Positions 28,433 to 43,132 of a DNA stretch of 64,000 nucleotides are shown piece by piece (within the stretch, counting starts at the first letter, position 1; each line of letters begins with the position of its first letter). The position numbers and the translations under genes are program-made. Location: assembly GCA_021201665.1 (NCBI GenBank), contig JAJQEO010000007.1, positions 1 to 64,000 on the forward strand, read 5' to 3'. Below the pieces are notes generated by a model, which made no database searches, was not told where the DNA came from, and worked only from the letters and a program-made list of their open reading frames with translations. Origin of the DNA: Lachnospiraceae bacterium (GTDB lineage: Bacteria; Bacillota; Clostridia; Lachnospirales; Lachnospiraceae).

Positions 28433-28556
28433 ATGCCTGATCAGGCAGTTTGAAATGTCCGTACTCATGTGGTGAGTAAGGACGAAGACAAGGCATTGAT
28501 GAGCGCAGCTGCCTGAGGATGGCATTGAGCCTTTTGCGGTTATCATATGAAAAGAT

Positions 28557-28592
28557 AATACCCCGGTTAGAAATCCTGACCGGGGTATTTTA
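28557..28592 (+). terminator. Terminator of the 5'-nucleotidase gene
   Basis: Eleven-base stem (AATACCCCGGT/ACCGGGGTATT) followed by a T-rich run. Confidence 0.85.
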
Positions 28593-28611
28593 TATGCACA
28601 CGGCCGCGTAA

Positions 28612-28763
28612 GGCATATCCCATGCGAAGCGTGGGATGCCACCCGGCGAGGGAGTTTTATGGCTTACGCCCACGTCATAAGGTTCTACGCTTCGCTCCGG
28701 TCGGCGCTAAACGAGTGCCACTGGCACTCAGCGCCCTCCGACTTCGTCGGCAATCCTTATGAC
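28612..28763. repeat. Mosaic of three palindromic repeat units
   Basis: 28612-28652 is the reverse complement of a unit inside the hemD coding sequence (49893-49935; GGATGCCACCCGGCGAGGG). 28674-28763 is a GTCATAAGG...CCTTATGAC unit, shared with 22883-22923. Within it sits the GTGCCACTGGCAC palindrome (28693-28735), shared in reverse with 23796-23838. The rest of the 28433-28940 gap holds the terminator and the promoter below. Confidence 0.75.
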
Positions 28764-28846
28764 ATTATACGCGGCCGGCGCGACGAGCAGGGGACAAGTC
28801 TCCCTGCTGATCCTTTTGAATTTTTCGCAATTTTTCCACTCTTGCA

Positions 28847-28875
28847 TTGACATTCGCCTCAATTTTTCAGATAAT
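28847..28875 (+). promoter_or_regulatory. Promoter of the TIR-STAND gene
   Basis: TTGACA at 28847-28852, a 17-base spacer and GATAAT at 28870-28875, about 65 bases before the start codon. It could drive the whole downstream run to the kinase gene. Confidence 0.75.
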
Positions 28876-28940
28876 CTACTGTATGAAACACAAAGCTAAG
28901 GCACAAACCGGACTTCAACAGATTTTGAGGTATGCTACAT

Positions 28941-31900
28941 ATGACGAACCAAGTGCAGAACCAAAAGACAAAACAGCCCCTGCGTATTTTTATCAGCTAT
29001 GGGCACACGGAGCATCCCCTCTGCCGCCGGATTGCGGACGCATTGAGAGAAAGAGGGCATGAGGTCTGGTTTGATCAGGATCAGCTTCACGAGGGTGTCA
29101 ACTGGCGAAGAGAGATCGCGGAGGGACTGCGGTGCAGCAATGGTGTAGTGGCCTGTCTTTCAGACCATTATGTCCGCTCCCGCAGCGTCTGCCTGGATGA
29201 GCTTAACATCGTCATCGGTGTAAAAGGAGGGGAGCACATCTACACCATTTTGCTCGGCGATGAGAAAATCATTCCGGCGACGCTCTCCCACAACCAGTGG
29301 CTGGATATGCGCGACTGGGAAGAGCGTCTTTCCGGGAATCCGGAAGCCTTTGAGGAGTGGTTCGGCGGATGTATGTCAAAGCTGTTCCGCATTCTTGAAA
29401 CGCCGGATAACCGTGTATTTTCCGGCGAAATTCAGACTCTGCAGGAGCTTTTGCAGGTGTTTCCCAATACCAGCCGTCAAAGCGCTCTCCTGAAAAAGCC
29501 CTTTGTGGGGCGCGAATGGCTGACCAGATATCTGGAGGACTGGCTGAATGACGAAAATGCCGAGCGAGTCCTGTTCCTTTGCGGAAGTCCGGGCGTTGGC
29601 AAGAGTGCTTTCGCCGCGCACTACACGCATTATAATCCTCGCGTGGCGGCGGCTATTTTCTGCCGTGCAAAAGAGCAGCAGTTTAACGATCCGCGAAGCA
29701 TTCTGAAAATGCTCTCCTATCTGCTGGCCTGCCGGGTTCCCGATTACCGCAAAAGCCTGCTGACGCGGCTCGGAGTTTTCGAGGAGACAGATGTCGGGCC
29801 GGAGCAGGAGCCTGAAAAGCTGATGCCTGGACAGGTGCAGGAAAAGCTGTCGTCAGATCGGCAGCCGGGAAGAGGATCGCATGGCCGGTTAAATGGACCT
29901 GTCATGTTCGGTGCCTGTAATGAGCGGGAATTGTTCCGCATCTTGTTTGAAGAGCCTCTGGCGAATCTTATAGACGGCGGGCGTGAGAGAGTTTGTCTGG
30001 TGATTGACGGACTGGATGAGGCCGGTACCGCAGATAAGAATCCGCTTGCGGAAACTTTGGGTACCTATCTGCCCATGCTTCCATCCTGGCTGCGAGTGCT
30101 TGTGACTGGCCGCCCGGTACCTGCTCTGATTCAGAATCTGGGACAGAATCAGCTGCTGCGGAAGCGGAACCTGGATGGCATGATGGGTGACAATCTTGCA
30201 GATGTGCGGATGTATTTTTCAAAGATGCTGAACGATTCTTTTCAGACGGAAGCCCGGCGCAAGAGGTCTTCAGAATTTCGGGAACAGCTTCCGATGCAGA
30301 CGATTCTGACTGACTCTGCGAATATAACCGATTTGCGGGCTGCTCTTTCCGGAAATGATGACCAGGCATCTATAGTAAGAAGCGATCTTGAAGCTGCTTT
30401 GGATGAACTGACTCTTCGGTCACGGGGCATTTTCCTTTACGCTGAGCTGGTCTGTCAGGGAATTCTCGAAGGAAGACTCTCCCTGGCAGATTCTGAAAAA
30501 TTTCCGGATGGTCTTCAGAATTCCTTTAACAGCTGGTTTCAATGGTTTTTCCCTGATCTGGAAGACTTTGAAGACCAGTTTGAGCCGGCCTTCGGCATCC
30601 TCTGCGCGGCGGAGGAACCGCTGCCCACGGAAGAGCTGCGGCGTATCTTCCACTGGAAGGAAAAGCAGCTGCGCCGGTTTTTCAGGCGCATCGAGGTTTT
30701 GCTGGAGTACGGTGAGAATGTGTTCGGGAAGGAAACGGTTACCTTTTCCCATTTTTACATAATAGAATGGCTGACTGATTACGAGAAAAACAGGCTGTAC
30801 TACGTTTCTGCGGAGGACGCAAAAGAAACGATGGCCGATGCATTTTTGTCTCAGCTGCGTCAGAGTCCTGATGACATGACGGAATTCGAGGCCTGCTATC
30901 TTCTGCAGCTGTTAGATGAGTGCGGAAGGAAGAAAGAGCTGGCAGAGGCAGTTGCCGGCAGCCATCTGTTCCGGAAAAATACGGAATCAGGCAAGTTTTG
31001 CCGGGAATGGGGACATCTGGATAAGGCAAGGTTCTATTTTTACCGCGCCTTTCTGGCTGCAGAAGCCAGAGAAAACCGTCTGACAGACTCTGAAGCGCGG
31101 AATCATTACTGTGCGGCCTGCGACCGTATTGGAAGATTAGAGGCCGTGCGCGGCAACACGACAGAGGCGGCAAAATGGTATCAAAAGGAACTGGACATTG
31201 CCCGGAGACTGGCGGCCGCCTGCAGCATTCCAGGTGTTTCGGAATCTCCCGGGGAGCCGGGTATTGCTTCTGACGCGGAAGTTTCCAGGGAGTCTGATAC
31301 CGTCGCTGTTGTTGAAACACCGGAGGTCTTGCACGACCTGATTACCATTCATGAAAGGCAGGCCTATTTTCACAGGAGACTCGGAGAACAGCAGACAGCC
31401 ATGGCGCATCTGGAGGAAGCCCGTGTATTCGCGGAACGTCTGGCTGCGGTCAGCGAGACGCCTGCCAGCTGGCGGGAGATGGAAGACTGCTATGTCCGGC
31501 TGGGAAATCTTTCGCAGGAGCGCGGCGACCTGAATTCGGCCGGGAGATGGTTTGATCAGGCGTTTGCCATCGCCAGGCGGCTGGAAGCAAGTCAGAGCGC
31601 AGCCATCTACCTGCGGGATCTGGGAATCTGCTATGACCGGATGGCCCGCCTGACGCAGGAACGCGGCGATCTGGCGGAAGCCGAAGAATGGTTTATGAAA
31701 GCGCTTGCTGTCACTAAAAGGCTTGTTGCAGTAAATGAGACCGCGGAACCGATGCGTGATCTGAGCGTCTGCTATCTCAAGCTGGGCGATCTGTCCCGGG
31801 AAAGAAGGGATTACCCCAAAGCCCGGGAGTGGTTTGAAAAAGTGCTGGAAATCCGGGAGCCGCACGCTAAAAAGCGCGGGATGCCCAAGGATCAGCGCGA

Positions 31901-32075
31901 TGTGGCCAGTGTCTATCTTCGCATTGGCGATACGGCTCTGGATGCCGGCGACCCGGCGGAAGCGCGGAAATGGTTTGAAAAAGCCCTTGTGATAGCGGAG
32001 CATCTGGTGAATATCCGCTGTACCTGGCAGGACCGTCAGGATCAGGCCGCCATCAGGGAAAGGCTGGGAAGGTGA
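28941..32075 (+). CDS. TIR-STAND NTPase with C-terminal TPR-like repeats
   Basis: A 1044-residue NLR-like protein. The N-terminal TIR domain (about 14-150) has RIFISYGHTEHPLCRRIADAL, GHEVWFDQDQLHEGVNW and CLDELNIVIG, with the Glu where NAD-cleaving TIRs have their catalytic residue. A STAND/NACHT-like ATPase has Walker A CGSPGVGKSAFAAHY near 215 and Walker B CLVIDGLDEAG near 351, then VLVTGRPVP. From about 680 to the end are helical repeats (RGDLAEAEEWFMKALAV, RRDYPKAREWFEKVLEI, AGDPAEARKWFEKALVI), typical TPR sensor units. Two linker stretches look low-complexity. The ATG at 28941 is ten bases after GAGG. Such architecture is known in antiphage defence; the effector activity here is inferred. 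The next gene begins nine bases downstream. Confidence 0.9.
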   Translation: MTNQVQNQKTKQPLRIFISYGHTEHPLCRRIADALRERGHEVWFDQDQLHEGVNWRREIAEGLRCSNGVVACLSDHYVRSRSVCLDELNIVIGVKGGEHIYTILLGDEKIIPATLSHNQWLDMRDWEERLSGNPEAFEEWFGGCMSKLFRILETPDNRVFSGEIQTLQELLQVFPNTSRQSALLKKPFVGREWLTRYLEDWLNDENAERVLFLCGSPGVGKSAFAAHYTHYNPRVAAAIFCRAKEQQFNDPRSILKMLSYLLACRVPDYRKSLLTRLGVFEETDVGPEQEPEKLMPGQVQEKLSSDRQPGRGSHGRLNGPVMFGACNERELFRILFEEPLANLIDGGRERVCLVIDGLDEAGTADKNPLAETLGTYLPMLPSWLRVLVTGRPVPALIQNLGQNQLLRKRNLDGMMGDNLADVRMYFSKMLNDSFQTEARRKRSSEFREQLPMQTILTDSANITDLRAALSGNDDQASIVRSDLEAALDELTLRSRGIFLYAELVCQGILEGRLSLADSEKFPDGLQNSFNSWFQWFFPDLEDFEDQFEPAFGILCAAEEPLPTEELRRIFHWKEKQLRRFFRRIEVLLEYGENVFGKETVTFSHFYIIEWLTDYEKNRLYYVSAEDAKETMADAFLSQLRQSPDDMTEFEACYLLQLLDECGRKKELAEAVAGSHLFRKNTESGKFCREWGHLDKARFYFYRAFLAAEARENRLTDSEARNHYCAACDRIGRLEAVRGNTTEAAKWYQKELDIARRLAAACSIPGVSESPGEPGIASDAEVSRESDTVAVVETPEVLHDLITIHERQAYFHRRLGEQQTAMAHLEEARVFAERLAAVSETPASWREMEDCYVRLGNLSQERGDLNSAGRWFDQAFAIARRLEASQSAAIYLRDLGICYDRMARLTQERGDLAEAEEWFMKALAVTKRLVAVNETAEPMRDLSVCYLKLGDLSRERRDYPKAREWFEKVLEIREPHAKKRGMPKDQRDVASVYLRIGDTALDAGDPAEARKWFEKALVIAEHLVNIRCTWQDRQDQAAIRERLGR

Positions 32076-32084
32076 GTTTGAAAC

Positions 32085-32957
32085 ATGAATAGCATTCAGA
32101 ATCAGTTCGAAGAATTTTGTGCGGAGTCACAGCTTTTCTCACATGCTGCTGATATTGACTATCTGGGGATCGACATTTCCGGTGGAAGTACACTGCCCGT
32201 TCAGTTTAAATTATACTATGGGAATTCCTACAGTCAGAAAGCCTCACATCCCCTGATTGATTATCTTTCTTCGAAAAATATGATCCGCTATGTAACCCTG
32301 GTGCGGGATTTGCAGATCCCGGGGAGAGGACGCTTCGATATCGGCCTGAAAAACCGCTCAGACGATCACATGGAGAGCCTCTTTGCCTGGCTGTCTGAAA
32401 AAGTCCCTTTCTATAAGAAAGCGGAGGAAGAAATTCGAAAGCTCTCTCAGATCCGGGTGACGGAGCGCGAAGGATTTCGCCATGCCGGACTGTATTTTCT
32501 GGGAATGATTTCACAGGAGGATGCGATAGAGGTCCTGAAATGCCATTATTTTCTGAGAATGTGTGAGCATCCGGATGTTCTTCATAAAAATATTTCCTAC
32601 ATGGATTCGGTGTATCTGGAGGAGCTGGCTCGCTCTGGGTCGAAGGAATTTGCGCTTCTTTCCGAATGTGCGGCACGGCTGCTGTCTGTCTGCGGCGGAC
32701 ATCTCTGGATGGCCGGCACAGATTACGCGGAAGGGAAAGCTTCCAAATATAAGATTTATATCAAGAATCCGATGGAAATTTATGAGGGGCTGGCGCAGGT
32801 ATTAGGCAGAGCGGAATACGCGCCTGAGCTGTCGGATTTCCTGATGGAAGTCGAAAAATGGCAGAGCGATAACCCGGCTTTTTCCTGCGAGGGCTTTGCC
32901 GTCTGTCTGACTTCGGACGGCGAGTGGTCTGTCAATTTTTATAATGTAATGATATAA
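32085..32957 (+). CDS. Unknown protein, possible peptide-modifying partner
   Basis: A 290-residue soluble protein that I do not recognise. It shows a recurring strand-then-helix pattern: VQFKLYYGNS, GRFDIGLKNRSDDHMESLFAWL, KYKIYIKNPMEIYEGLAQVLG, and a C-terminal CEGFAVCLTSDGEWSVNFYN. That periodicity and the length are compatible with an ABBA-fold prenyltransferase, an enzyme type that prenylates Trp or other residues in some RiPPs. The similarity is impressionistic, not a family match. It starts nine bases after the TIR-STAND stop, with GGGAAGGTGAG overlapping the stop region, so the two are almost certainly co-transcribed. The radical SAM gene follows after 68 bases. Confidence 0.75.
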   Translation: MNSIQNQFEEFCAESQLFSHAADIDYLGIDISGGSTLPVQFKLYYGNSYSQKASHPLIDYLSSKNMIRYVTLVRDLQIPGRGRFDIGLKNRSDDHMESLFAWLSEKVPFYKKAEEEIRKLSQIRVTEREGFRHAGLYFLGMISQEDAIEVLKCHYFLRMCEHPDVLHKNISYMDSVYLEELARSGSKEFALLSECAARLLSVCGGHLWMAGTDYAEGKASKYKIYIKNPMEIYEGLAQVLGRAEYAPELSDFLMEVEKWQSDNPAFSCEGFAVCLTSDGEWSVNFYNVMI

Positions 32958-32991
32958 TCCGTAGTATCTACCCCTTTTGCCACTCGAATCA
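32956..32991 (+). repeat. AATCCGTAGTATC...CTCGAATCA repeat, copy 2
   Basis: A 36-base block that recurs almost unchanged at 47872-47907, with its right half also at 3607-3625 in reverse. Here it begins at the stop codon of the upstream gene and lies just before the radical SAM gene. Confidence 0.7.
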
Positions 32992-33025
32992 AAAAAATAG
33001 GACGACACAAAGAGATGGAGCCCAC

Positions 33026-34135
33026 ATGAGAGAACTTATGCTGGTTTTGACAGAAAGCTGCAACCTGGCGTGCCGGTACTGTTATGAAAAGCAGGAAGGG
33101 CACGGGCTGGACTTTGAGTCCGCTAAAAAAATTCTGGATAAGGAATTGTCTTCTGTAAGTGAATTGCCTGCTGTCAGTGACAGTCGGGTGCAGATTTCTT
33201 TCTTTGGGGGAGAGCCTTTCCTGAATTTTTCCGTGATGCGGCAGGTGTATGAGTATGTAGAGAAAGAATATGGAGAATGCGACGTCACGTATGCGGCGAC
33301 TACCAATGGTACGCTGATCCATGGGGAGATTCAAAAGTGGCTCAAAGAAAGAAAGGATCGGTTTCACATTACTCTGAGTCTGGATGGGACGCCGGCCATG
33401 CATGACCGCAGTCGGGCGGATGCTTCCGGGAGAGGCTCCTTTGGGCAGATAGATCGGGATTTCTTTTTGAAAACCTGGCCCGGGTGTGTTGCCAAGATGA
33501 CAATTTCACCGGATACGGCTTGTGATTTCGCGAATGGGATTATTTATCTGGAAGGCCTTGGCTTTCGCTGCAAAGCGAACTTCGCTTCCGGAGTAGAGTT
33601 TGACCTGGGGCACCAAGAACCAATTATTTTGAAAAATATGATGCAGCTGGTCGATTACTACAGTGCTAATGACATCCCGCTGTGCTTTATGCTGGATCTG
33701 AATCTGAAGCAGATCCTGAAACCGGTGGATGGGGCATTTCGCTATTGCGGTGCAGGTACCAGGCGGCATTGTTACGACGCACAGGGAGACGGCTGGTACC
33801 CCTGTCAGGGATTGACACCGATGGCTGTCGCCGGAAGAAGCACTGTTTTCCGGGAATGTTCGTTTGCGGAAACATTCCTTTATCATCACTGCCGCACCTG
33901 CCTTTTTGTTCGGCTCTGCAGAACCTGCTACGCAATGAATCATTCCGCGACAGGGAATGTCTGGAAACCGGATGGACAGATCTGTTATCTGAACCGGCTG
34001 TGCATGCTCACCAGTGCCAGGATTCAGTATAATCGCATGAAAAGGGGGCAGGTAACGGATCCAGCACTTATGAAAGCGGTCCTTCTGATAGCGAAGGAAC
34101 TCAATGGATTAGCGCAGGATATTGTCAGATATTAG
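33026..34135 (+). CDS. Radical SAM/SPASM peptide maturase
   Basis: A 369-residue enzyme. The SAM-cluster motif CNLACRYCYE is at residues 12-21, with FFGGEPFLN and TNGTL nearby and LSLDGTPAMHDRSR in the barrel. A Cys-rich C-terminal SPASM region (about 240-335) for auxiliary Fe-S clusters has YCGAGTRRHCYD, GWYPCQGL, CSFAET, CRTCLFVRLCRTCYA and ICYLNRLC. Proteins of this layout form thioether, C-C or similar cross-links in ribosomal peptides. No PqqD-like recognition domain is visible at the N-terminus. It lies 29 bases before a 42-codon peptide gene, which is the obvious substrate candidate. The exact chemistry cannot be told from sequence. Confidence 0.9.
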   Translation: MRELMLVLTESCNLACRYCYEKQEGHGLDFESAKKILDKELSSVSELPAVSDSRVQISFFGGEPFLNFSVMRQVYEYVEKEYGECDVTYAATTNGTLIHGEIQKWLKERKDRFHITLSLDGTPAMHDRSRADASGRGSFGQIDRDFFLKTWPGCVAKMTISPDTACDFANGIIYLEGLGFRCKANFASGVEFDLGHQEPIILKNMMQLVDYYSANDIPLCFMLDLNLKQILKPVDGAFRYCGAGTRRHCYDAQGDGWYPCQGLTPMAVAGRSTVFRECSFAETFLYHHCRTCLFVRLCRTCYAMNHSATGNVWKPDGQICYLNRLCMLTSARIQYNRMKRGQVTDPALMKAVLLIAKELNGLAQDIVRY

Positions 34136-34164
34136 CGATACTTTAAGGAAAGGAGGAGATTTTC

Positions 34165-34293
34165 ATGTTCACAGAAGAAGAAATCAAAGCAATGGAAGCT
34201 GCTGAGCAAACCAATACAATGACAGCAGCTGAAGTAACCGGAAGGGAAACCGGGGATGAGCATGCGATGTCAAGCGGCTGTGCGTGGGGATGA
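34165..34293 (+). CDS. Short peptide, candidate RiPP precursor
   Basis: A 42-codon gene with an ideal ribosome binding site (AAAGGAGGAG, spacing about 6). The product begins MFTEEEIKAMEAAE, an acidic helical leader. It continues with Thr/Ala/Glu-rich sequence and ends SSGCAWG. The last seven residues contain the only Cys and the only Trp, plus two Ser and two Gly, which looks like a core peptide. The neighbours are a radical SAM/SPASM enzyme upstream and an APH-like kinase downstream. There is no double-glycine cleavage site, protease or exporter gene nearby. Identification as a RiPP precursor is inference from size, composition and context. Confidence 0.7.
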   Translation: MFTEEEIKAMEAAEQTNTMTAAEVTGRETGDEHAMSSGCAWG

Positions 34294-34362
34294 ATATCAT
34301 TGAGCGGGAGAGACCGGCGCTGTGCTTGTGAAGAAAAGCGTAAACGCTCTGATCAGAAAGCC

Positions 34363-34455
34363 AAAAGAAGGAAAGACTAATAGAAGGAAAGACCAAAAGC
34401 AGAAAAGATCAAAAGAAGAAAAGATCAAAAGAAGAAAAACCTAAAAGAAGGATCG
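34363..34455 (+). repeat. A-rich imperfect tandem repeat
   Basis: About five to six imperfect units of roughly 16 bases (AAAAGAAGAAAAGATC type) fill the gap between the peptide gene and the kinase gene; the last overlaps the kinase ribosome binding site. Confidence 0.7.
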
Positions 34456-34457
34456 GT

Positions 34458-35537
34458 ATGGACATTGATGAAAAAGATATCCGCTGCTGCCTGGAGCAAT
34501 TCGGAATACAGCGCCCACTGAAAAAGTGGGCGCTGCTGGCGGACGGGCCGGATCATCCTGTCCCCTATGATGTAATCCGAAAAATATTTTTCACGGAAGT
34601 CGAGGGCGATATAAGGTATGTAATAAAATTTATCAGGGAGCCGGTATTTCCGACTAAATTGATTGAGCAGCAGTCGTGTTTCTCAGATCTGCTCAGAAAA
34701 AACGGCATTGCCACGCCGTTTCGCATGAAAAAGGATGGACATTATTGTGTCTCTTATGAAAAGGATTCTCAGGTCATGGATGTGACTGTGGAAGAGTGGA
34801 TGGGGGAGAAAATTGCGCATATAACGCCGGATTTTTTGCGGGAAGTCGGCTCTTTGCTCGGTAAGACCCATCGGATTTCTCTGAATTCCGGTATGAGGAT
34901 CGGTTTTTCTCTGCTGTATAACGAAATCCTGACTAGAGATACTTCTTACGCAAGGCTTTGGAAGGAATCCAACCATGAAATTATGCCTGCTGCCGCTTAT
35001 GAAAAGATTGTCGATCTATATAATCAGAGGCTGGCGATTGTGAAACGGGCATGGTCATCTCTTCCGAGAGCCGCCGTTCAGGGAGATATTTACAGCTGCA
35101 ACAATCTTGCCTGGAAGGATGGGCGGCTTGCATTGTATGACTTTAACCTGGCCGGGGATGAAGTCCTGATCGGAGATATTCTGCAGTGCTGGTTTCGAAC
35201 CATTTTTGACGAGCGCATGGAAGAGGATATGAAACAATATTTGCGGGAAGAGCTGTGGGATGCTTTTATCGGAGCCTATCAGAATGAAAGGCCCTTGACT
35301 GGGATTGAAAAGCAATACTTCCCGGATGCGTATTCTCTGTTCGGCGTGCTTTATTTTACAAAGCTTCTGGCGTTTCAGGTCAGAGATGGGCGGAAGGAAG
35401 AAGCTGTGCAGAATTATGAATATCTTTTTCGCCTGTTGGAGGTACAGAAGGTGCGGGAGATCTCATATCCCTCCTGCGCATTCAAAAATTGGATGCGCAG
35501 TTTTGTACTTGACAGTCGTATAGCGACTAATTTATAA
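34458..35537 (+). CDS. APH-family phosphotransferase (protein-kinase-like fold)
   Basis: A 359-residue kinase-fold protein of the aminoglycoside phosphotransferase/choline kinase superfamily. The catalytic loop is VQGDIYSCNN near 206-215 (HGD..N type with Gln replacing His), and the metal-binding motif is DFN near 228 (LYDFNLAGDEVLIGDI). An N-lobe Lys is in YVIKFIREPVFPTK. Family members phosphorylate small molecules or, in some RiPP clusters, peptides. It is the last of five same-strand genes starting with the TIR-STAND gene. A role in phosphorylating the Ser of the 42-residue peptide is possible but speculative; an antibiotic-resistance enzyme is the alternative. Confidence 0.85.
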   Translation: MDIDEKDIRCCLEQFGIQRPLKKWALLADGPDHPVPYDVIRKIFFTEVEGDIRYVIKFIREPVFPTKLIEQQSCFSDLLRKNGIATPFRMKKDGHYCVSYEKDSQVMDVTVEEWMGEKIAHITPDFLREVGSLLGKTHRISLNSGMRIGFSLLYNEILTRDTSYARLWKESNHEIMPAAAYEKIVDLYNQRLAIVKRAWSSLPRAAVQGDIYSCNNLAWKDGRLALYDFNLAGDEVLIGDILQCWFRTIFDERMEEDMKQYLREELWDAFIGAYQNERPLTGIEKQYFPDAYSLFGVLYFTKLLAFQVRDGRKEEAVQNYEYLFRLLEVQKVREISYPSCAFKNWMRSFVLDSRIATNL

Positions 35538-35538
35538 T
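35509..35538 (+). promoter_or_regulatory. Promoter of the DUF4143 ATPase gene
   Basis: TTGACA at 35509-35514, an 18-base spacer and TATAAT at 35533-35538, overlapping the end of the kinase gene. The spacer carries an AGTCG/CGACT inverted repeat (35514-35528), a possible operator. Confidence 0.75.
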
Positions 35539-35571
35539 ACAAACAAAAATCAGTCGTAATGGAGGCATGCC

Positions 35572-36828
35572 ATGTATAAAAAAAGAGCAATCGAATCAGT
35601 GATACAAAATACCGCAGGAAGTTTTAAGGGGATTTTGCTGACTGGCCCCAGACAGACAGGGAAATCAACGGTGCTGCAGCATATGTATGGAGATCGAAGA
35701 TATATTTCATTTGATGATCCTGTGCTGCTCTCTGAGACAAAAGCGGAACCAGGACTGTTTTTCCGTAACAACCGGCCGCCTGTCATCCTGGACGAGGTGC
35801 AGTATATTGCAGAATTATTCCCCTACATCAAGATGGAGTGCGATAAGAGTGATGAGAAGGGGCGGTTCCTTCTTACAGGCTCTCAGCAGTATCATTTAAT
35901 GAAGAATGTATCAGAGTCTTTGGCGGGCAGAATTGCTGTTCTGGAATTGACCGGGTTTTCCATGAGGGAGCTTATGGATTCCTCTTTTGATGCTCCTTTT
36001 GTTCCGTCAGAAAACTACATTTCTTCCAGAGCGTCATCTGTTTGCCAGATAGAGGATATTTGGAAGGTGATTCACAGAGGCAGTTATCCGGCGTTAATTG
36101 ATCAGAAGGTGAACTGGCAGATTTTTTATTCCTCTTATGTACAGACTTATATTGACAGAGATATTAATGAGCTTGGCAATGTGAAGGATAAATTGAAATT
36201 CACGCAGTTTATGACGGCTATGGCCGCGAGAACCGGACAGATTTTAAATTATTCGAGTGTTGCGGATCAGATTGAGGTTTCCGTAGGGACTGTCAAAGAG
36301 TGGACTTCGCTTCTGGAGGCTTCCGGGATTATCTATCTTTTACAGCCGTTTTCAAATTCTGCGCTTACACGCGCGATCAAGACTCCAAAGCTATATTTTC
36401 GCGATACGGGACTGGTATGTTACCTGACAAAGTACCAGAGTCCTGATACAGCGATGAATGGCGCGATGGCCGGAGAATTATTTGAGAGCTTTGTTGTCTC
36501 TGAGATTCTGAAGTCTTTTTCAAATGCCGGGCTGGATTATCGTATGTACGTTTTTTGGTACAGGGGAAAGGATAAGCGCAGAGTATCGGAAAACGGACAG
36601 GTCATAAGCCGGGAAAATGAGATTGACCTGCTGATTGAGCAGGATGACGTAATTTATCCTGTAGAAATTAAAATGTCTGCCAACCCGAAGCTGACTATGA
36701 CAAACGCGTTTGATGTTCTGGACCGGATTCCGGGAAAAAGACGCGGTGTGGGGGTCATTCTGTGCATGTATCCGTCTGTGCTCTGGCTGAAGGAGAATAT
36801 AGTGGCGCTTCCGGTTGAGTATATCTGA
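35572..36828 (+). CDS. AAA-type ATPase with DUF4143 domain
   Basis: A 418-residue protein of the AAA_14/DUF4143 family. The N-terminal P-loop is LTGPRQTGKSTVLQHMYGD (about 23-41), with YISFDDPVLL and PPVILDEVQYIAELFPYIK (Walker B). The C-terminal DUF4143 part has KLYFRDTGLVCYLTKYQSP and a PD-(D/E)XK-like NEIDLLIEQDDVIYPVEIKMS near 340. The family is abundant and mobile in anaerobes, and its function is unknown. GGAGG is six bases before the ATG. It has its own promoter and is probably not part of the upstream peptide cluster. Confidence 0.9.
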   Translation: MYKKRAIESVIQNTAGSFKGILLTGPRQTGKSTVLQHMYGDRRYISFDDPVLLSETKAEPGLFFRNNRPPVILDEVQYIAELFPYIKMECDKSDEKGRFLLTGSQQYHLMKNVSESLAGRIAVLELTGFSMRELMDSSFDAPFVPSENYISSRASSVCQIEDIWKVIHRGSYPALIDQKVNWQIFYSSYVQTYIDRDINELGNVKDKLKFTQFMTAMAARTGQILNYSSVADQIEVSVGTVKEWTSLLEASGIIYLLQPFSNSALTRAIKTPKLYFRDTGLVCYLTKYQSPDTAMNGAMAGELFESFVVSEILKSFSNAGLDYRMYVFWYRGKDKRRVSENGQVISRENEIDLLIEQDDVIYPVEIKMSANPKLTMTNAFDVLDRIPGKRRGVGVILCMYPSVLWLKENIVALPVEYI

Positions 36829-37024
36829 TTTGTCTGGACATATGCCGTTTTAACTGACGCGATAATCAGCACAAATTTATGCATATGCTGTTTTATATGG
36901 ATCAATATTAACAAACATTATTTCACATAATGTTTTGATTGATGCAATTATGAACGCGCATTATCAGAAGCCTGGCAGTTCTGGGAACTCCAGAAGCCAT
37001 ATTGTTCTGAATGCAATATTTTGG

Positions 37025-37053
37025 TTGCTTTTCATGCCCTCTTAGTTTATAAT
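37025..37053 (+). promoter_or_regulatory. Promoter of the RNA ligase gene
   Basis: TTGCTT at 37025-37030, a 17-base spacer and TATAAT at 37048-37053. Confidence 0.6.
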
Positions 37054-37095
37054 TGCTACAGAAAATCGGTAATTCGGCAGAGAGGGAGTGAGTGC

Positions 37096-38514
37096 ATGCC
37101 GGGATGGAATACCTGGAACCCTGTGTTACAGAAAGTGATAGAAATCAAGCGTGCTTATTTGGAACGCTTTGGAGAGATCGATTATGAGCGAACCACTGAA
37201 GGTACCTGTCTGGAGCGGTGGGTGCACCGGCTTTCGCAGAAAGACCTGTCCCGTCATGAGGATCTGGCGGAAAAGATTACGGATCATGAAGGTATTGAAG
37301 GAACAGAGACTGAGGACGTGGAAGTAAAGAAGCGGCAGACATGGGCACGGACAGATGCCGGAGAATGGAAACAAGAATATGAGCATGAATACGAGTATGA
37401 GTATGAGCAAATGCTCAGTCCTCTGAAGTTTTCTCAGAAGGGCACACTGCTTTTGATCCACTACGGAGATTACAACCGGCTTTTTGACGGGACGGGGCTG
37501 GATTATTCTCAATTCTGGGATTTGTTTGATGGGTTTTATCAGGAGTGCCGCGGTGTTGTGATTGACGTGAAGGAAGAGACGCTGGTTCTGACGCCCTTTC
37601 GCAAGTTCTGGAATCTGAACGAGCGGGAGGAGACGACGATGTCTGCCGTGCAGGAGCGGATCTGTCACGCGCGGTGTGTGGAGTTCTCGGAAAAGCTGGA
37701 CGGCTCGATGCAGTGCGCCAGGTGGTATCACAATGAACTCCTGATGTCCGGAAGCATGTCGATTGATCCGGATAATTCCTGGAGGCTCGCGGACGGATAC
37801 CGGATGCTGCGGGAGAGCCCGGGACACTGTGACATGGTGCAGGCTCATCCGGAATGGACATTTGTTTTTGAGTACATCTCACAGAAGGATGCGCATATCG
37901 TTACTTACGGTAAGGAGCAGGAGGGACTTTATTTGACCGGGATTCGCGAGGTGGATACCGGGCGTGAGTTTTCTTATGCGGAGGTCTGTGCGTGTGCGGA
38001 TGCGTTTCAGGTTCCACATACGCGGATTTATGACAAAAATCTGGAGCAGGTGGTGTCGGAGCTGGATGACCGGACGGCAAACGAAGCGGAAGGATTTGTC
38101 CTGAATATTGACGGCTATAAGGTAAAAATTAAATACAACGATTACGTTATGGTTCACCGGACAATCGACGGCTTGCTTTCTGGAAAGCAGATTGTCATAA
38201 GCATCGCGGAAGGCCGGTTTGATGATTTGCTATCCAAAATTCCTGAAAATTACCGGAAAAGGGTTCTTTCGGATGCCCAGCTGGTATACCGGTACGTCAG
38301 AAAGAAATCTGATATGGTGGAAGCTTATTATGAGGCGGCTCCGAAGGAGGACAGAAAGACGTTCATGCTGTGGGTTACGGAGCATGTGCCGCGTGAGCTT
38401 CAGGGATATTGCAGGGAACACTACCTGGGGCATGACCTGAATTTCCTGAAGCGGGGGAGTGAAAAGTGTCCGTCGTACACGAAAATGGAGGATATCCGGG
38501 CGTTTTTTGATTAG
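37096..38514 (+). CDS. T4 Rnl1-like RNA ligase
   Basis: A 472-residue nucleotidyltransferase-fold RNA ligase. The adenylation motif I is EKLDGSM with Lys near 200. FVFEYI (motif IIIa), EGFVLNIDG (motif IV) and KVKIKYNDYV (motif V) follow in order. YQECRGVVID and PFRKFWNLNE are typical N-terminal blocks. An acidic Glu/Tyr repeat (EYEHEYEYEYEQ) is extra sequence near residue 97. The start at 37096 has GAGGGAG upstream; an ATG at 37021 would translate the promoter region. The adjacent kinase-HD gene could supply the matching end-healing activities, giving an RNA (probably tRNA) repair pair. Target RNA is unknown. Confidence 0.9.
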   Translation: MPGWNTWNPVLQKVIEIKRAYLERFGEIDYERTTEGTCLERWVHRLSQKDLSRHEDLAEKITDHEGIEGTETEDVEVKKRQTWARTDAGEWKQEYEHEYEYEYEQMLSPLKFSQKGTLLLIHYGDYNRLFDGTGLDYSQFWDLFDGFYQECRGVVIDVKEETLVLTPFRKFWNLNEREETTMSAVQERICHARCVEFSEKLDGSMQCARWYHNELLMSGSMSIDPDNSWRLADGYRMLRESPGHCDMVQAHPEWTFVFEYISQKDAHIVTYGKEQEGLYLTGIREVDTGREFSYAEVCACADAFQVPHTRIYDKNLEQVVSELDDRTANEAEGFVLNIDGYKVKIKYNDYVMVHRTIDGLLSGKQIVISIAEGRFDDLLSKIPENYRKRVLSDAQLVYRYVRKKSDMVEAYYEAAPKEDRKTFMLWVTEHVPRELQGYCREHYLGHDLNFLKRGSEKCPSYTKMEDIRAFFD

Positions 38515-38660
38515 GAAGGGATTTCTCAGGAATTCTCATGCGGCAAAAGATTCTGACTGGTTCACTGCATCACGCAGCAATCGTTTCGACTAGCAAGGCA
38601 ATCGGAAACGCCGGATATGGAGCCAGGTTGCGGTTCGGTTTTATAACAGGAGAGAAATAT

Positions 38661-39707
38661 ATGGCAGGAAATTTATACCTCATGGTGGGACTATCTGCGA
38701 GCGGAAAATCGTCCATTGCCCGGGAAATTGCCGCCGGAGAGGACGCACTGATCGTATCTTCGGACACCATCCGCGGCGAGCTGTCCGGCGGAAACTGCGC
38801 AGACCAATCCAGGACAAATGAAGTGTTCCGCATTTTTAACCAGAGAATCCGGGACGGCCTGCGTGCCGGAAGAACGGTCGTTGCAGATGCCACGGAGCTG
38901 ACCATGAAGGCTCGCAGAAGTCTGCTGGGCGGGGTGAACGGGCTGGCGAAGACGGTTTGTGCCTGCGTTGTGATAAAGCCGGTAGAAGATTGCATTCGGG
39001 ACAATCCGCTGCGGAAATATCCGGTGCCGGAGAAAGTCATTCGCCGCCAGGCCGAGGGATTTCAGATTCCTTTCTATGAAGAAGGGTTTGATGAAATCAG
39101 GATTTATCGCGCATTCAAAGGACGGGAAGCTCAGTTAGTGAGCGGACCGGCTATGGACAGACTGAGCCAGATGAATGTGCTTGCCGGGAGCAGCCAGAGC
39201 CGGATGGACGGTTTTGCGGAGAACGGCCAAAGCCGGATGGACGGTTTTGCAGAGAACGGCCAGAGCCGGATGGATGGCTTTATCGAGGACTGCCTGCAAA
39301 GGATGGACGGTTTTGATCAGAAAAACCCGCATCATACGATGCCCCTGGGCGAGCACTGCCGGTTTGTCGCTGATCGTTTTCGTGAGAAGGGATACGGAGA
39401 TCTTTTCTGCAAAGCTGCCCTGCTTCACGATATCGGGAAGCTGTTTACGCAGCAGATGGATGCGGAAGGAGTTGCGCATTATTTTTCGCATGACAGTGTG
39501 GGAGCGTATTATCTGCTTTGCCATATGCCGCTGGAGGATTTCGGAAGCACGGAGGATCTGGTGGAATTTCTGTTTCTGGTCAATTATCACATGCTGCCGT
39601 TTGGCTGGGAAACGGAGAAAACCAGGAGTAAGTGGGAGCAGAGACTTGGCACCTGCAAAAAGAAGCTGCTGCTGGATTTTCATGAGTGCGACTGTGCGTG
39701 CGGGTGA
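38661..39707 (+). CDS. Polynucleotide kinase-like P-loop / HD phosphohydrolase fusion
   Basis: A 348-residue protein. The N-terminal kinase is of the T4 Pnkp/AAA_33 type, with MVGLSASGKSS at 8-18, SSDTIRGELSGG, VVADATELTMKAR and RKYPVPEKVIRRQAEGF. The C-terminal part is an HD domain (LGEHCRFVADRF, KAALLHDIGKL near 255, HFSHDSVGAYYL-like). Between them are about 3.5 copies of an 11-residue repeat (SRMDGFAENGQ), encoded by 33-bp DNA repeats. The start at 38661 has AGGAGAG eight bases upstream. Its position after an RNA ligase gene suggests it repairs RNA ends: 5'-phosphorylation, with the HD domain perhaps acting on phosphate ends. The last point is inference. Confidence 0.85.
   Translation: MAGNLYLMVGLSASGKSSIAREIAAGEDALIVSSDTIRGELSGGNCADQSRTNEVFRIFNQRIRDGLRAGRTVVADATELTMKARRSLLGGVNGLAKTVCACVVIKPVEDCIRDNPLRKYPVPEKVIRRQAEGFQIPFYEEGFDEIRIYRAFKGREAQLVSGPAMDRLSQMNVLAGSSQSRMDGFAENGQSRMDGFAENGQSRMDGFIEDCLQRMDGFDQKNPHHTMPLGEHCRFVADRFREKGYGDLFCKAALLHDIGKLFTQQMDAEGVAHYFSHDSVGAYYLLCHMPLEDFGSTEDLVEFLFLVNYHMLPFGWETEKTRSKWEQRLGTCKKKLLLDFHECDCACG
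39198..39320 (+). repeat. 33-bp in-frame tandem repeats
   Basis: Units at 39198, 39231 and 39264, with a degenerate fourth at 39297, each encoding an SRMDGFAENGQ-type segment between the kinase and HD domains. Confidence 0.9.
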
Positions 39708-39833
39708 TGTGCTGCGCCAGATTTTTGCGTTTGAGATTCAGGCATCAGGAAGGGCGAGACAGGCATATTATTCCCGCGAAGCAACGAGCCCCTTATGGCA
39801 TAGTTTGCACGGATATTTGCCCCTCACTACAGG

Positions 39834-41013
39834 TTAATGGTGCAATTTGGCCGCGTAGGTGCAAAGCGCTTCTATATTACGCTCCACACCATCAACAATT
39901 TGCTGTATGCGGAGTTCTGGCATGATTCCGCTTGAGCGGAGGATGTTTTGTACGTCTTCTGAAAATCCGGAAAGTCTGCCGGTATCCAGCCAGCTTAAGT
40001 CTGTGAACAGACGGAGCTGGTCCATCGGCGTGAGTGAGTCCAGATCAAAAGGACGTGCATAATAGTCATAGCTTTCCGGGGAATCAAGACTGGTCTCCCA
40101 GCACCAGAGACTGTTGCCGCAGTCAAAAATCGGAGCAATTCTGGTATAGTTCAGTGTTTCTACATTCCGGATGACGCCAAAGTTCTGCCAGTGACGATCA
40201 CAGTTTGCCATGATAAAGTCAGAAACGAACATTTTAGACAGAGAAATCTCCGGATGCAAAAGACCCAGATTCCGATAGCAGTCAAGCAGGTGGTGATAAT
40301 CATCAACGCCCTGTTTCTGACGGCGGGAACGGATTATATCATAGGCAGGAACGAGCTCTTCATCTTTTCCCAGCATGTTTGGACATGCACAATATGTTTT
40401 CCTGTCTTCTTTTACCAGAAAATAGGGCATGTAATCCTGCTGCTCCAGTATTCTTTCATGTAATTTTGAGGCTATGATTTCATTCCATACTTCATCTGAT
40501 GTGCGGCCGGATCCTGCTTTCAGAAGAATGCGCTGCCCATTGACGATTTTCCATTTTTTCTGGAGATTTCCATTCAGAGTGCCGTTTGGAGAAAAAAGAT
40601 CCAGCCCTCCGCAAGAGTGCTGCCCCATTGTCAGAAATCCCAGATCATTGCTGAAGTCATTTTCAAAAAAGTTAATATTTTTCCATTCCTGCGGTTCGGC
40701 CGGATTATCGAGCCAGTAGCAGTCGGACAGTGACAGGCCAAAGCAGCGTTCAGCAAGCTCCATGGGCAGATCCAAGACGCAGCCGTTCCATAAGCGAACG
40801 CAGCTGGTTGCGGGATGCCGGAATGGCACGGCCTGACCACCAGGAATTAAAAGAATAGATGGTCATCTTTTTGTCTACTGTCAGTGCGCCTGGGGGCGCG
40901 TAAGCAAGATCAAAGCTTTCTTTGACTGCAATCGCCTGGTGCCCGTCGAGGTCATAGCGTATTTCAGCTACCGGATGATTTTTATTCATAAGAATGTAGT
41001 TTGTGAATGCCAT
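39834..41013 (-). pseudogene. HipA-like kinase gene with a frameshift
   Basis: Two overlapping minus-strand frames together make one HipA-domain protein. The N-terminal frame (41013 to 40750) gives YILMNKNHPVAEI, LAYAPPGAL and WWSGRAIPASRNQLRSLMERL. The family-like sequence then continues in another frame with LDLPMELAERCFGLSLSDCYWL and WKNINFFENDFS, down to 39834. Kinase motifs remain: ILLKAGSGRTSDE, DFIMANCDRHWQNFGVI and IFDCGNSLW. The switch lies near 40770-40785. It may be a true pseudogene, a sequencing error or frameshifting. HipA kinases phosphorylate aminoacyl-tRNA synthetases in persistence systems; no HipB partner is seen. The 41014-41388 gap upstream contains a MITE-like repeat and otherwise nothing recognised. 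Confidence 0.75.
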
Positions 41014-41138
41014 TGTCTGCCTCCCACCAGGTTCTCCAGGTAAGCGTCCGGAATAAAGAAAAATGATGTTTCAAATTCCGGCACTATCTTAACAGATAAT
41101 AATCCAAATTGCAATGTTCCGGGTTCTTATTTGTAAAC

Positions 41139-41223
41139 GAAACGATTCAGGACGGGACCTCGCACCTGCGGTGAAGTACCTGTGAAAGTATATAGTATCT
41201 GTGAAGGTACGGAACCATTACTG
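41139..41223 (+). repeat. MITE-like element, degenerate copy
   Basis: GATTCAGGACGGGACCTCGCA at the left and CTGTGAAGGTACGGAACCATTAC at the right match the two ends of the complete element at 62224-62326. Confidence 0.55.
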
Positions 41224-41388
41224 ATAAATATAGAGTACATATCTGACGAAAGCAGATTTACGCAGACTTTACGCGCCCTTCAGAAAAAAATAAGAATATT
41301 TTGCTTTTCCATGCCGGATGAGTGTGCTATCCTGCCTGTATGCAAATGTACCTGAGCTGTACAGTTCTGCAAAAAGGAGGGCGGGCAG

Positions 41389-42351
41389 ATGATTATGTGG
41401 AGAAGAGAGACGCTAAAAGACCGTGCAAAGGTTGCTTTTAAAGGGAATTACTGGAGGTGCGTGGTAGTCGCGCTGGTTCTTTCCCTGCTGATGCAGGGGA
41501 CGAGCCGAAGCACGAGCAATGATGACAGCAGTACATCGGTTACTTATGATGATTATTATGAATACGATGAGTCGTATTTTGAGGATATTTACAATAATAT
41601 CGGCATTGAAGTCGGCTCAAGTGGCGGTGTTGTAGATTTTCTGACTTCCGGAGCCGCAGAGCAGGTGGTAAACAGCGCCTTTAGCGGGCTGCCGCTATTA
41701 TTCCGCACGTTGGTCTCTCTGCTGCTGTCGACAGCCGGACTGGTGATGACGGTTTTCTTTCTTCTTGTGGCACTGGCGCTGGAATTTCTGGTCACACCGG
41801 TGCTGGAAATCGGCGGCTGCCGTTTTTTCGTGAAGAATTCTGAAAATACGTTTGCGGATTCAGTGGAAAACCTGATAGGTGATCAGAGCCTTGATTCGAG
41901 TTCAGAAGGTGATGGAGGCTCAGCCTCAGGGCGGAACAGTAAAAGTCTGCGGGCGCATCCGTCGATGCTCTTGACCGGGTTTGTCGGCGGGTATTACTGG
42001 AGCCTTGTAAAGACGCAGTTTTTAAGGAAGCTCTATACCTTCCTCTGGACGCTGCTGCTGGTGATTCCGGGCATTGTGAAGTCCTATGAATATTGCATGA
42101 TCCCCTACCTGCTGGCGGATTTTCCGGATATGGAGCCGGATGTGGCGTTTTCGATCAGCCGGACGATGATGGACGGCAATAAGCTGGAGACATTCATTCT
42201 CGATCTGTCCTTTATCGCCTGGGAGCTGCTGAGTTCGGTGACCCTGGGGATTGTGGGGGTCTTTTACGTGAATCCTTATGAATACGCGACGAAGGCAGAG
42301 CTTTACAGGGTGTTGAAAAACGAATATTTTTCCGGGAGAGAGAACGGATAA
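41389..42351 (+). CDS. DUF975 family membrane protein
   Basis: A 320-residue integral membrane protein. It begins with the DUF975 pattern RRETLKDRAKVAFKGNYWRCVVVALVLSLL. An extracytoplasmic Asp/Ser/Tyr-rich segment follows, then several hydrophobic helices, FFVKNSE, VKTQFLRKLYTFLWTLLLVIPGIVKSYEYCMIPYLLADFPD and FSISRTMMDGNKLETFILDLSFIAW. That conserved block is diagnostic. Function is unknown. GGAGG is eight to nine bases before the ATG. It is divergent from the HipA-like gene and convergent with rubrerythrin. Confidence 0.85.
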   Translation: MIMWRRETLKDRAKVAFKGNYWRCVVVALVLSLLMQGTSRSTSNDDSSTSVTYDDYYEYDESYFEDIYNNIGIEVGSSGGVVDFLTSGAAEQVVNSAFSGLPLLFRTLVSLLLSTAGLVMTVFFLLVALALEFLVTPVLEIGGCRFFVKNSENTFADSVENLIGDQSLDSSSEGDGGSASGRNSKSLRAHPSMLLTGFVGGYYWSLVKTQFLRKLYTFLWTLLLVIPGIVKSYEYCMIPYLLADFPDMEPDVAFSISRTMMDGNKLETFILDLSFIAWELLSSVTLGIVGVFYVNPYEYATKAELYRVLKNEYFSGRENG

Positions 42352-42451
42352 ACAAGCAGAAATGGTAACGGCAAGTGTGAAAAAACAGGATCGAAGTGTG
42401 TTTTTTGACAGAAATCACATCAAACAGTAAATGAGATAAATAATCGAGCAG

Positions 42452-42490
42452 AAAATCGGACAGGGAGATCAGTTCCTCTGCCCGATTTTT
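42452..42490. terminator. Bidirectional terminator between DUF975 and rbr
   Basis: AAAATCGG and CCGATTTTT arms with a further AGG/CCT pairing and a short loop, T-rich on one side and A-rich on the other. It lies between two convergent genes. Confidence 0.7.
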
Positions 42491-42529
42491 GATGCACAGG
42501 GGTGCCTCCTGCCCGATTCTGATGCGATT

Positions 42530-43132
42530 TTACCTGACATCCGCGAACGGCGACAGCTCCAGCCGGATAAAATACCCCTGATCGTGATGGCAGACCGGGC
42601 ATTTGACGGGCGCTTTGGAACCGGTGTAGATAAATCCGCATTTCAGGCAGATCCAGCCTGTCTGTACATCGGAGACGAAAAGCCTGTTATCCTCCATGTA
42701 CTGTGCGAACCGTCCGAAGCGGTCTCCGTGATATTTTTCAATCTGTGCGATCTTGTGAAAGGAGGCGGCTACATCCAGAAAGCCTTCTTCCTTTGCGGTG
42801 TCGCCAAAGCTGATATAGACGGAATTGGCTTCCTCATATTCATTGTGCTGAGCCCTGCGCAGCAGGTCACTGATGCTGTCGCTGATGTCGACAGGATAGC
42901 CGCCGTCCACATGGATCGTGGAACCGGAGAGCTGCTGCAGATGCTGATAAAAGATCTCCGCATGTTCACGCTCCTGGTTGGCGGTATAGGTAAAAACCGC
43001 CTCGATCACATGCAATTGCTCCTTCTTAGCCTGAGAGGCCGCAAAGGTGTAGCGGTTTCTCGCCTGGCTTTCCCCTGCGAAGGCCCGCATCAGGTTGTCT
43101 TTTGTGATACTGTTCTCAAAATTGACTGCCAT
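42530..43132 (-). CDS. rbr: Rubrerythrin
   Basis: Non-haem diiron peroxidase that protects anaerobes from hydrogen peroxide. The 200-residue protein has an N-terminal four-helix ferritin-like domain: NLMRAFAGESQARNRYTFAA with the first Glu ligand, YTANQEREHAEIFY, and AKEEGFLDVAASFHKIAQIEKYHGDRF with EXXH-type ligands. The C-terminal rubredoxin-like domain has CLKCGFIY and CPVCHHDQGYF. AGGAGG precedes the ATG. It probably takes electrons from a rubredoxin or NADH-dependent reductase encoded elsewhere. The 43133-43359 gap upstream is AT-rich with no recognised feature. Confidence 0.96.
   Translation of the reverse strand: MAVNFENSITKDNLMRAFAGESQARNRYTFAASQAKKEQLHVIEAVFTYTANQEREHAEIFYQHLQQLSGSTIHVDGGYPVDISDSISDLLRRAQHNEYEEANSVYISFGDTAKEEGFLDVAASFHKIAQIEKYHGDRFGRFAQYMEDNRLFVSDVQTGWICLKCGFIYTGSKAPVKCPVCHHDQGYFIRLELSPFADVR

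What the first reader, a model, noticed from the sequence alone, without database searches (positions are those of the whole stretch)
28941..35537. TIR-STAND receptor gene leading a peptide-modification gene set
Five genes run on the same strand: TIR-STAND-TPR, an unknown 290-residue protein (9-base gap), a radical SAM/SPASM enzyme, a 42-codon peptide gene (29-base gap) and an APH-like kinase. A promoter lies before the first gene. TIR-STAND proteins are known immune-type receptors, and radical SAM/SPASM enzymes modify ribosomal peptides. I know of no described system joining these parts. One model is that the modified or phosphorylated peptide is a ligand, inhibitor or alarm signal for the TIR-STAND protein. 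There is no exporter or protease, which fits an intracellular role. Chance adjacency of two modules is the alternative.
Basis: partly seen in the sequence, partly recalled or inferred. Interest (0 to 1): 0.88.

Follow-up and report, generated by a model that had tools for sequence, protein, structure and literature searches.

The report
Receptor gene beside lipid-tailed peptide pathway
A bacterial immune-type receptor gene sits directly in front of genes that appear to make a small, lipid-tagged and cross-linked peptide; the peptide pathway looks like a new combination of enzymes, while its link to the receptor is suggestive but unproven.

Summary
The five genes are real and lie on one strand. 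The main advance is the "unknown 290-residue protein". Its AlphaFold model has five beta-hairpins separated by helices, and all 11 PDB matches at E<=0.001 are PT-barrel prenyltransferases, led by peptide prenyltransferases (DciF, PirF, KgpF) and indole prenyltransferases. Its only two relatives found both lie beside a radical SAM/SPASM gene; one also lies beside a short peptide with Cys and Trp at its C-terminus, as in the window. So 32085-34293 reads as a ribosomal-peptide (RiPP) pathway: prenyltransferase, radical SAM/SPASM enzyme and a 42-residue precursor ending SSGCAWG, probably cross-linked at Cys39 and prenylated at Trp41. Paper searches showed no RiPP class combining the two enzymes.

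No TIR-STAND gene was seen at either relative locus (one locus is cut off by a contig end), and a kinase relative stands alone elsewhere. The receptor link rests on the 9-base gap, the shared strand and the precedent of FxSxx peptide systems joined to TIR-ATPase-TPR genes (PMC7159879), which contradicts "no described system". Verdict: a new variant of a known kind; RiPP reading strong, receptor link open, phosphorylated-peptide idea weak.

The parts
28847..28875 (+). sigma-70-like promoter candidate (TTGACA-17-GATAAT) before the TIR-STAND gene
   Evidence: consensus scan, 11 of 12; weak alone, 12 sites found against 8.9 expected in the region
28932..32075 (+). TIR-STAND(NPHP3_N/NACHT-like)-TPR protein, 1047 aa (start 28932) or 1044 aa (start 28941)
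   Evidence: Walker A GSPGVGKS at 218 and Walker B LVIDGLDE at 356; TIR aligned to NAD hydrolase structures with the Glu of DELN opposite the Glu of YELN in 7uxr
32085..32957 (+). predicted PT-barrel (ABBA-type) peptide prenyltransferase, 290 aa
   Evidence: AlphaFold pLDDT 74.2, pTM 0.78, five beta-hairpins; Foldseek: 11 of 11 PDB matches at E<=0.001 and 47 of 50 listed rows are prenyltransferases; relatives beside radical SAM genes
32929..32958 (+). possible internal promoter before the SPASM gene
   Evidence: consensus scan 10 of 12, TG before -10; not evidence of function
33026..34135 (+). radical SAM/SPASM peptide maturase, 369 aa, nearest to PapB-type ranthipeptide maturases
   Evidence: Radical_SAM Pfam 9.4e-10; NCBIfam PapB 2.7e-38 but 132 bits against a cut-off of 340; Cys motifs
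34165..34293 (+). 42-residue precursor peptide, C-terminus SSGCAWG
   Evidence: strong ribosome site; 29 bases after the maturase; a 43-residue peptide with C-terminal Cys and Trp lies in the same place in L035
34357..34450 (+). purine-rich 16-base tandem repeat between the peptide and kinase genes
   Evidence: Tandem Repeats Finder, 5.9 copies
34458..35537 (+). homoserine-kinase/APH-like kinase, 359 aa; role in the pathway uncertain
   Evidence: NCBIfam homoserine kinase 8e-11, under cut-off; QGDIYSCNN and DFN present
35474..35500 (+). terminator-like stem at the end of the kinase gene

Best explanation
Genes 32085-34293 make a ribosomal lipopeptide. The radical SAM/SPASM enzyme installs a cross-link on the 42-residue precursor, most likely a thioether from its only Cys (Cys39). 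The PT-barrel enzyme attaches an isoprenoid, most likely to the only Trp (Trp41). The product is a short intracellular peptide with a prenylated C-terminus that can sit on the membrane. The co-oriented TIR-STAND-TPR gene, 9 bases upstream of the prenyltransferase gene, most likely encodes the receptor that reads this peptide through its TPR part: disturbance of the peptide or of its membrane site during infection would let the STAND module assemble and the TIR domain cleave NAD. Shown by computation: gene order, domain content, PT-barrel fold, association of the prenyltransferase family with radical SAM/SPASM genes and once with a Cys/Trp-tailed peptide. Inferred: the modified residues, the receptor-peptide link, NAD cleavage and defence. 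My odds: PT-barrel fold 0.9; peptide is the substrate of both enzymes 0.8; functional link of peptide and TIR-STAND 0.4. The confidence below is for the whole chain.
For: Fold and PDB matches. Relatives: 2 other loci, both directly beside a radical SAM/SPASM gene (L032/L034: overlapping by 10 bases; L033/L035: 3-base gap). With 2 and 12 SPASM matches in those genomes, chance adjacency on the same strand is of order 1e-3 each (my rough estimate, about one gene per kb). L035 has a 43-residue peptide ending KCSSSCCFYRDGATW next to the maturase with a strong ribosome site. The L035 homologue carries a PqqD-like C-terminus, weak (E 0.014, under cut-off). Prenyltransferase start 9 bases after the TIR-STAND stop, its ribosome site inside the end of that gene. 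TIR similar to NAD hydrolases. FxSxx precedent. Published peptide prenyltransferases modify Trp (KgpF, MppC; passages).
Against: No TIR-STAND gene near the two relatives in the stretches scanned: 36,000 of 49,625 bases for G498; 17,096 bases for G532, whose contig ends 303 bases downstream. No precursor peptide recognised at the G532 locus. The G532 and G498 maturases belong to different SPASM types and match the window's weakly. TM-scores to known prenyltransferases are modest (0.42-0.60 by query length) with rmsd 6-10 A, and the model rests on 3 sequences. A candidate internal promoter could split the unit. 0 of 20 other radical SAM regions of family genomes hold a TIR/STAND match and 0 of 8 regions with the genome's other TIR genes hold a radical SAM match.
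Confidence: 0.4

Rival explanations
1. Same prenylated radical SAM peptide, but independent of the receptor: an exported signal or bacteriocin (a ComX-like prenyl-Trp pheromone is the nearest thought), with the TIR-STAND gene as separate defence cargo in the same variable region.
For: No TIR-STAND gene seen beside either relative of the prenyltransferase. The region 28.4-42.5 kb had no blastn match in the flank-bearing stretches of two congeners and holds other unrelated-looking accessory genes. Possible internal promoter at 32929-32958. ComX being a modified pheromone is recalled and appears only as a reference title.
Against: The prenyltransferase gene, which belongs to the peptide set, is the one 9 bases behind the TIR-STAND gene, so the two halves are interleaved in one probable transcript. 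No exporter, protease or two-component genes among the five; the Pfam scans of neighbours named none (part of the window only).
Confidence: 0.38
2. One reading: the kinase phosphorylates the peptide and the phosphopeptide is the receptor's ligand.
For: Kinase on the same strand, with catalytic-loop residues; the peptide has Ser36-Ser37.
Against: No kinase match at the G498 and G532 loci, and the kinase relative in G367 has no radical SAM or prenyltransferase match around it. 164-base gap with a simple repeat before the kinase gene.
Confidence: 0.08
3. The PT-barrel protein is inactive or acts on another substrate (small indole, nucleic acid), or serves as a peptide-binding partner of the maturase.
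For: Remote similarity only; partners are radical SAM enzymes of different types, which a carrier could tolerate.
Against: Lys, Tyr and Arg residues on the barrel strands are invariant in the three sequences (K42, Y44, R91, K221, K223, Y225, K227, Y286), as expected of diphosphate-binding barrels (recalled).
Confidence: 0.1
4. The radical SAM gene and kinase are a prokaryotic viperin pair making antiviral nucleotides.
For: PADLOC pVip models match at 1e-13 and 4e-9; PADLOC knows viperins associated with kinases.
Against: NCBIfam viperin scores 47 bits against a cut-off of 180, while PapB-type peptide maturases score 132 bits (under their own cut-off of 340); SPASM-type Cys cluster and neighbouring peptide.
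Confidence: 0.02

Closest known systems
FxSxx-COOH peptide systems coupled to TIR-AP-ATPase-TPR genes (Kaur et al. 2020, PMC7159879, passages seen)
   Same: Short precursor, radical SAM-SPASM maturase and a TIR-ATPase-TPR protein encoded together; proposed role as peptide toxin or signal in conflict.
   Different: Here the peptide ends SSGCAWG, there is a predicted prenyltransferase, none of the five genes is a metallopeptidase, no MoxR-vWA genes were seen among the genes examined, and the ATPase is NPHP3_N/NACHT-like, not a clear NB-ARC (E 0.058).
Peptide prenyltransferases of the PT-barrel fold (DciF, PirF, KgpF; leader-dependent MppC of PMC12715784, passages)
   Same: Predicted fold and size; beside a precursor with a C-terminal Trp.
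   Different: 8-12% identity in the structural alignments to DciF, PirF and KgpF; partner is a radical SAM/SPASM enzyme instead of cyanobactin proteases or a lanthionine synthetase.
PapB-type ranthipeptide maturases (NCBIfam NF047865)
   Same: Best NCBIfam match of the window's maturase (2.7e-38) and of the G532 maturase (8e-54).
   Different: Far under the cut-off (132 and 183 of 340 bits); short Cys-poor peptide.
ComQ-ComX pheromones (recalled)
   Same: Short peptide with a prenylated Trp near its C-terminus would be alike.
   Different: Different prenyltransferase fold (recalled); no radical SAM step; no sensor kinase or response regulator in the set.

Membership tests
PT-barrel (ABBA/F-type) prenyltransferases | barrel of five beta-hairpins surrounded by helices | tested here: met
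   AlphaFold model with hairpins 26-45, 67-88, 133-158, 206-227, 266-289; 11 of 11 Foldseek PDB matches at E<=0.001
PT-barrel (ABBA/F-type) prenyltransferases | sequence match to a curated family | tested here: not met
   no Pfam match at 0.1, no NCBIfam match at 1; no prenyltransferase in the PDB profile search
PT-barrel (ABBA/F-type) prenyltransferases | isoprenyl transfer activity | not testable with these tools
   needs an assay
FxSxx-COOH system | precursor ending in an FxSxx motif | tested here: not met
   peptide ends MSSGCAWG
FxSxx-COOH system | FxsB-type radical SAM maturase | tested here: not met
   NCBIfam FxsB 42.6 bits against a cut-off of 370
FxSxx-COOH system | TIR-ATPase-TPR gene beside the peptide genes | tested here: met
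FxSxx-COOH system | metallopeptidase gene | tested here: not met
   none among the five genes; the genes next door that were scanned also showed none
PapB-type ranthipeptide maturase | score over the NCBIfam cut-off | tested here: not met
   132.1 of 340 bits
TIR-STAND immune-type receptors | TIR, P-loop STAND ATPase with Walker A and B, and repeat C-terminus | tested here: met
TIR-STAND immune-type receptors | NAD cleavage and phage defence | not testable with these tools
   needs an assay
prokaryotic viperin | score over the NCBIfam viperin cut-off | tested here: not met
   47.1 of 180 bits

The most novel reading that the evidence does not exclude
A new class of ribosomal peptide, cross-linked by a radical SAM/SPASM enzyme and prenylated at a C-terminal Trp by a PT-barrel enzyme, that serves as the built-in membrane-bound ligand or guarded bait of a TIR-STAND receptor in bacterial immunity.
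Probability: 0.25. Interest if true: 0.88.

Novelty: new variant of a known kind. Interest (0 to 1): 0.6.

Why it matters
If true, it gives a cheap test of an open question: what FxSxx-like modified peptides do for TIR-ATPase-TPR proteins. It would also be the first RiPP type I know of that joins radical SAM cross-linking with prenylation (no such class surfaced; recalled literature only beyond that), and it names a remote prenyltransferase family that the sequence libraries searched here (Pfam, NCBIfam) miss.

Tried and rejected
Rejected or led nowhere. Viperin reading: disfavoured by scores. Mobile plasmid or phage origin: no match of the 8.1-kb stretch in plasmids, of the prenyltransferase in plasmids, phages or viral contigs, or of the receptor in plasmids. 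Wider hunt for the prenyltransferase family (sets overlap): 3 of 392 order genomes, own included; 1 of 391 class genomes, the own one; 1 of 38 and 1 of 48, the query genomes themselves; 1 of 47 genus genomes, the own one; the genome-contig scan with the single protein found none and with the alignment found the same two loci. Profile search of PDB sequences gave only one chance-level hit, E 0.089. I considered a HopA1-like lyase paired with the kinase (class V lanthipeptide style) for the 290-residue protein before the model came; the fold result speaks against it and it was not tested further. A structure of the G498 homologue with its PqqD-like tail could not be run: the machine stayed busy. 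Papers: search listings; passages only of PMC7159879, PMC12715784, PMC13290415 and PMC11002830.
Full report
Observation. The window lies in contig C84 of an unnamed 4.7-Mb genome. The first is TIR_2, NPHP3_N and TPR by Pfam, with a NACHT match under its cut-off and Walker A and B motifs. Its TIR part aligns to NAD-hydrolase TIR structures (7uxr, 3h16, AbTIR 8g83), with the Glu of SVCLDELN opposite the Glu of YELN in 7uxr; that this Glu is catalytic is recalled. The 42-codon ORF has a very good ribosome site.

The unknown gene. The 290-residue protein matches nothing in Pfam at E 0.1 or NCBIfam at E 1. Two relatives were found, both in MAGs titled Clostridiales/Clostridia bacterium: G532 (30% identity) and G498 (23%). 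In G532 it overlaps the end of a radical SAM/SPASM gene by 10 bases; in G498 it precedes one by 3 bases, and a 43-residue peptide ORF follows. The G498 copy has an extra C-terminus with a weak PqqD match (E 0.014, 16.2 of 23.4 bits), the type of domain that binds precursor peptides (recalled). The AlphaFold model from three sequences has pLDDT 74.2 and pTM 0.78, with ten strands in five hairpins. Foldseek against PDB gives 11 matches at E<=0.001, all PT-barrel prenyltransferases (DciF, DMATS1, PirF, KgpF, CdpNPT, AnaPT, NotF); 47 of the 50 listed rows are prenyltransferases and 3 are designed beta-barrels. TM-scores are modest (0.42-0.60 by query length for the prenyltransferase rows), as expected of a remote member and a three-sequence model. 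Invariant residues include K42, Y44, R91, K221, K223, Y225, K227 and Y286, on barrel strands.

The pathway. The maturase has the CX3CX2C motif and a SPASM-type Cys set; its nearest curated family is PapB (132 of 340 bits), and so is that of the G532 enzyme (183 of 340). The G498 enzyme is nearest to AhbD/NirJ-like and sactipeptide-type enzymes. Thus one prenyltransferase family travels with different radical SAM/SPASM enzymes. The window peptide has one Cys (39) and one Trp (41) in its last four residues; the G498 peptide has three Cys and a terminal Trp. Published peptide prenyltransferases act on Trp (KgpF, named in passages of PMC11002830; MppC at Trp82, passages of PMC12715784). I therefore expect a Cys thioether or similar cross-link and a prenylated Trp. 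The kinase has no counterpart at the two relative loci, and its G367 relative (29% identity) lies among genes that look by eye like mobile-element genes, so it may be unrelated.

The receptor. The TIR-STAND gene is not a constant neighbour of this pathway: none at G498 (36,000 of 49,625 bases scanned) or G532 (17,096 bases scanned, cut by the contig end 303 bases downstream). Its nearest family relative (G234; 1 other of 250 genomes at E<=1e-30) has no match to the maturase, prenyltransferase or kinase in 15 kb. As controls, 0 of 20 radical SAM regions from family genomes (20 of the 30 other places) contain a TIR/STAND match, and 0 of 8 regions holding the genome's other TIR genes contain a radical SAM match. 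Several of these regions are cut by contig ends, and most of the 20 radical SAM genes are not close kin of the window's. What supports coupling is local: same strand, 9-base gap, ribosome site of the prenyltransferase gene inside the receptor gene, and a candidate promoter upstream. A candidate internal promoter at 32929-32958 would put the maturase, peptide and kinase under separate control, but the prenyltransferase would still be on the receptor's side, so the halves stay interleaved.

Location. Flanking genes have counterparts in two congeners (G1014, G1019), but the stretch from about 28.4 to 42.5 kb had no blastn match in the four congener stretches fetched, and the prenyltransferase is in 1 of 47 genus genomes, the own one. 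It is therefore probably an acquired region. The contig itself belongs to the genus by its flanking genes (5'-nucleotidase 91% and 90% protein identity).

What is known. Kaur et al. 2020 (PMC7159879; passages) describe peptide-processing systems with FxSxx peptides, a metallopeptidase and a radical SAM-SPASM enzyme coupled to AP-ATPases with TIR and TPR, and propose a peptide toxin or signal. The present set lacks the FxSxx motif, the FxsB-type maturase and a metallopeptidase, and adds a predicted prenyltransferase. It fails membership of that system but may work like it. Paper searches with prenyltransferase, radical SAM, SPASM, ranthipeptide and RiPP terms showed no class joining prenylation and radical SAM maturation (listings capped at 10-15 rows, open-licence papers only).

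Verdict. RiPP with a predicted prenyltransferase: about 0.8. Functional link to the TIR-STAND gene: about 0.4. Phosphopeptide ligand: under 0.1.

Noticed in passing
window 37021-38514 and 38538-39707: T4 Rnl1-like RNA ligase (3.3e-22) next to a P-loop kinase (AAA_33) whose C-terminal half shows an HD-like motif by eye: a possible RNA repair pair in the same variable region.
   Followed up: no
window 35572-36828: AAA_14/DUF4143 protein matching PADLOC candidate PDC-S01 at 1.8e-98, with a 12-of-12 promoter-like site just upstream.
   Followed up: no
window 39834-40829, minus strand: Protein with a weak HipA_C match (1e-4, under cut-off).
   Followed up: no
window 39193-39281: 33-base tandem repeat, 2.7 copies, inside the AAA_33 gene.
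   Followed up: no
window about 28433-42542; L075 2718-12627: Variable region between genes shared with congeners; in L075 about 10 kb separates cbiK and rubrerythrin, against about 0.4 kb in L076, suggesting an insertion hot spot.
   Followed up: partly
L035 5032-13808: After the relative's peptide come a Ser-rich HerA-like ATPase (NF033849 5.8e-19, under cut-off), a Big_2 protein, a DnaK-like and a DnaJ-TPR protein; a phage-type integrase lies upstream at 389-1519.
   Followed up: partly
L034 16959-17096: A second radical SAM-like start (CNGMCPYC, by eye) right after the G532 relative, cut off by the contig end.
   Followed up: no
genome G000: Ten TIR_2 matches over the cut-off in one genome (nine besides the window's), two of them with identical scores and lengths on contigs C26 and C118.
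   Followed up: partly
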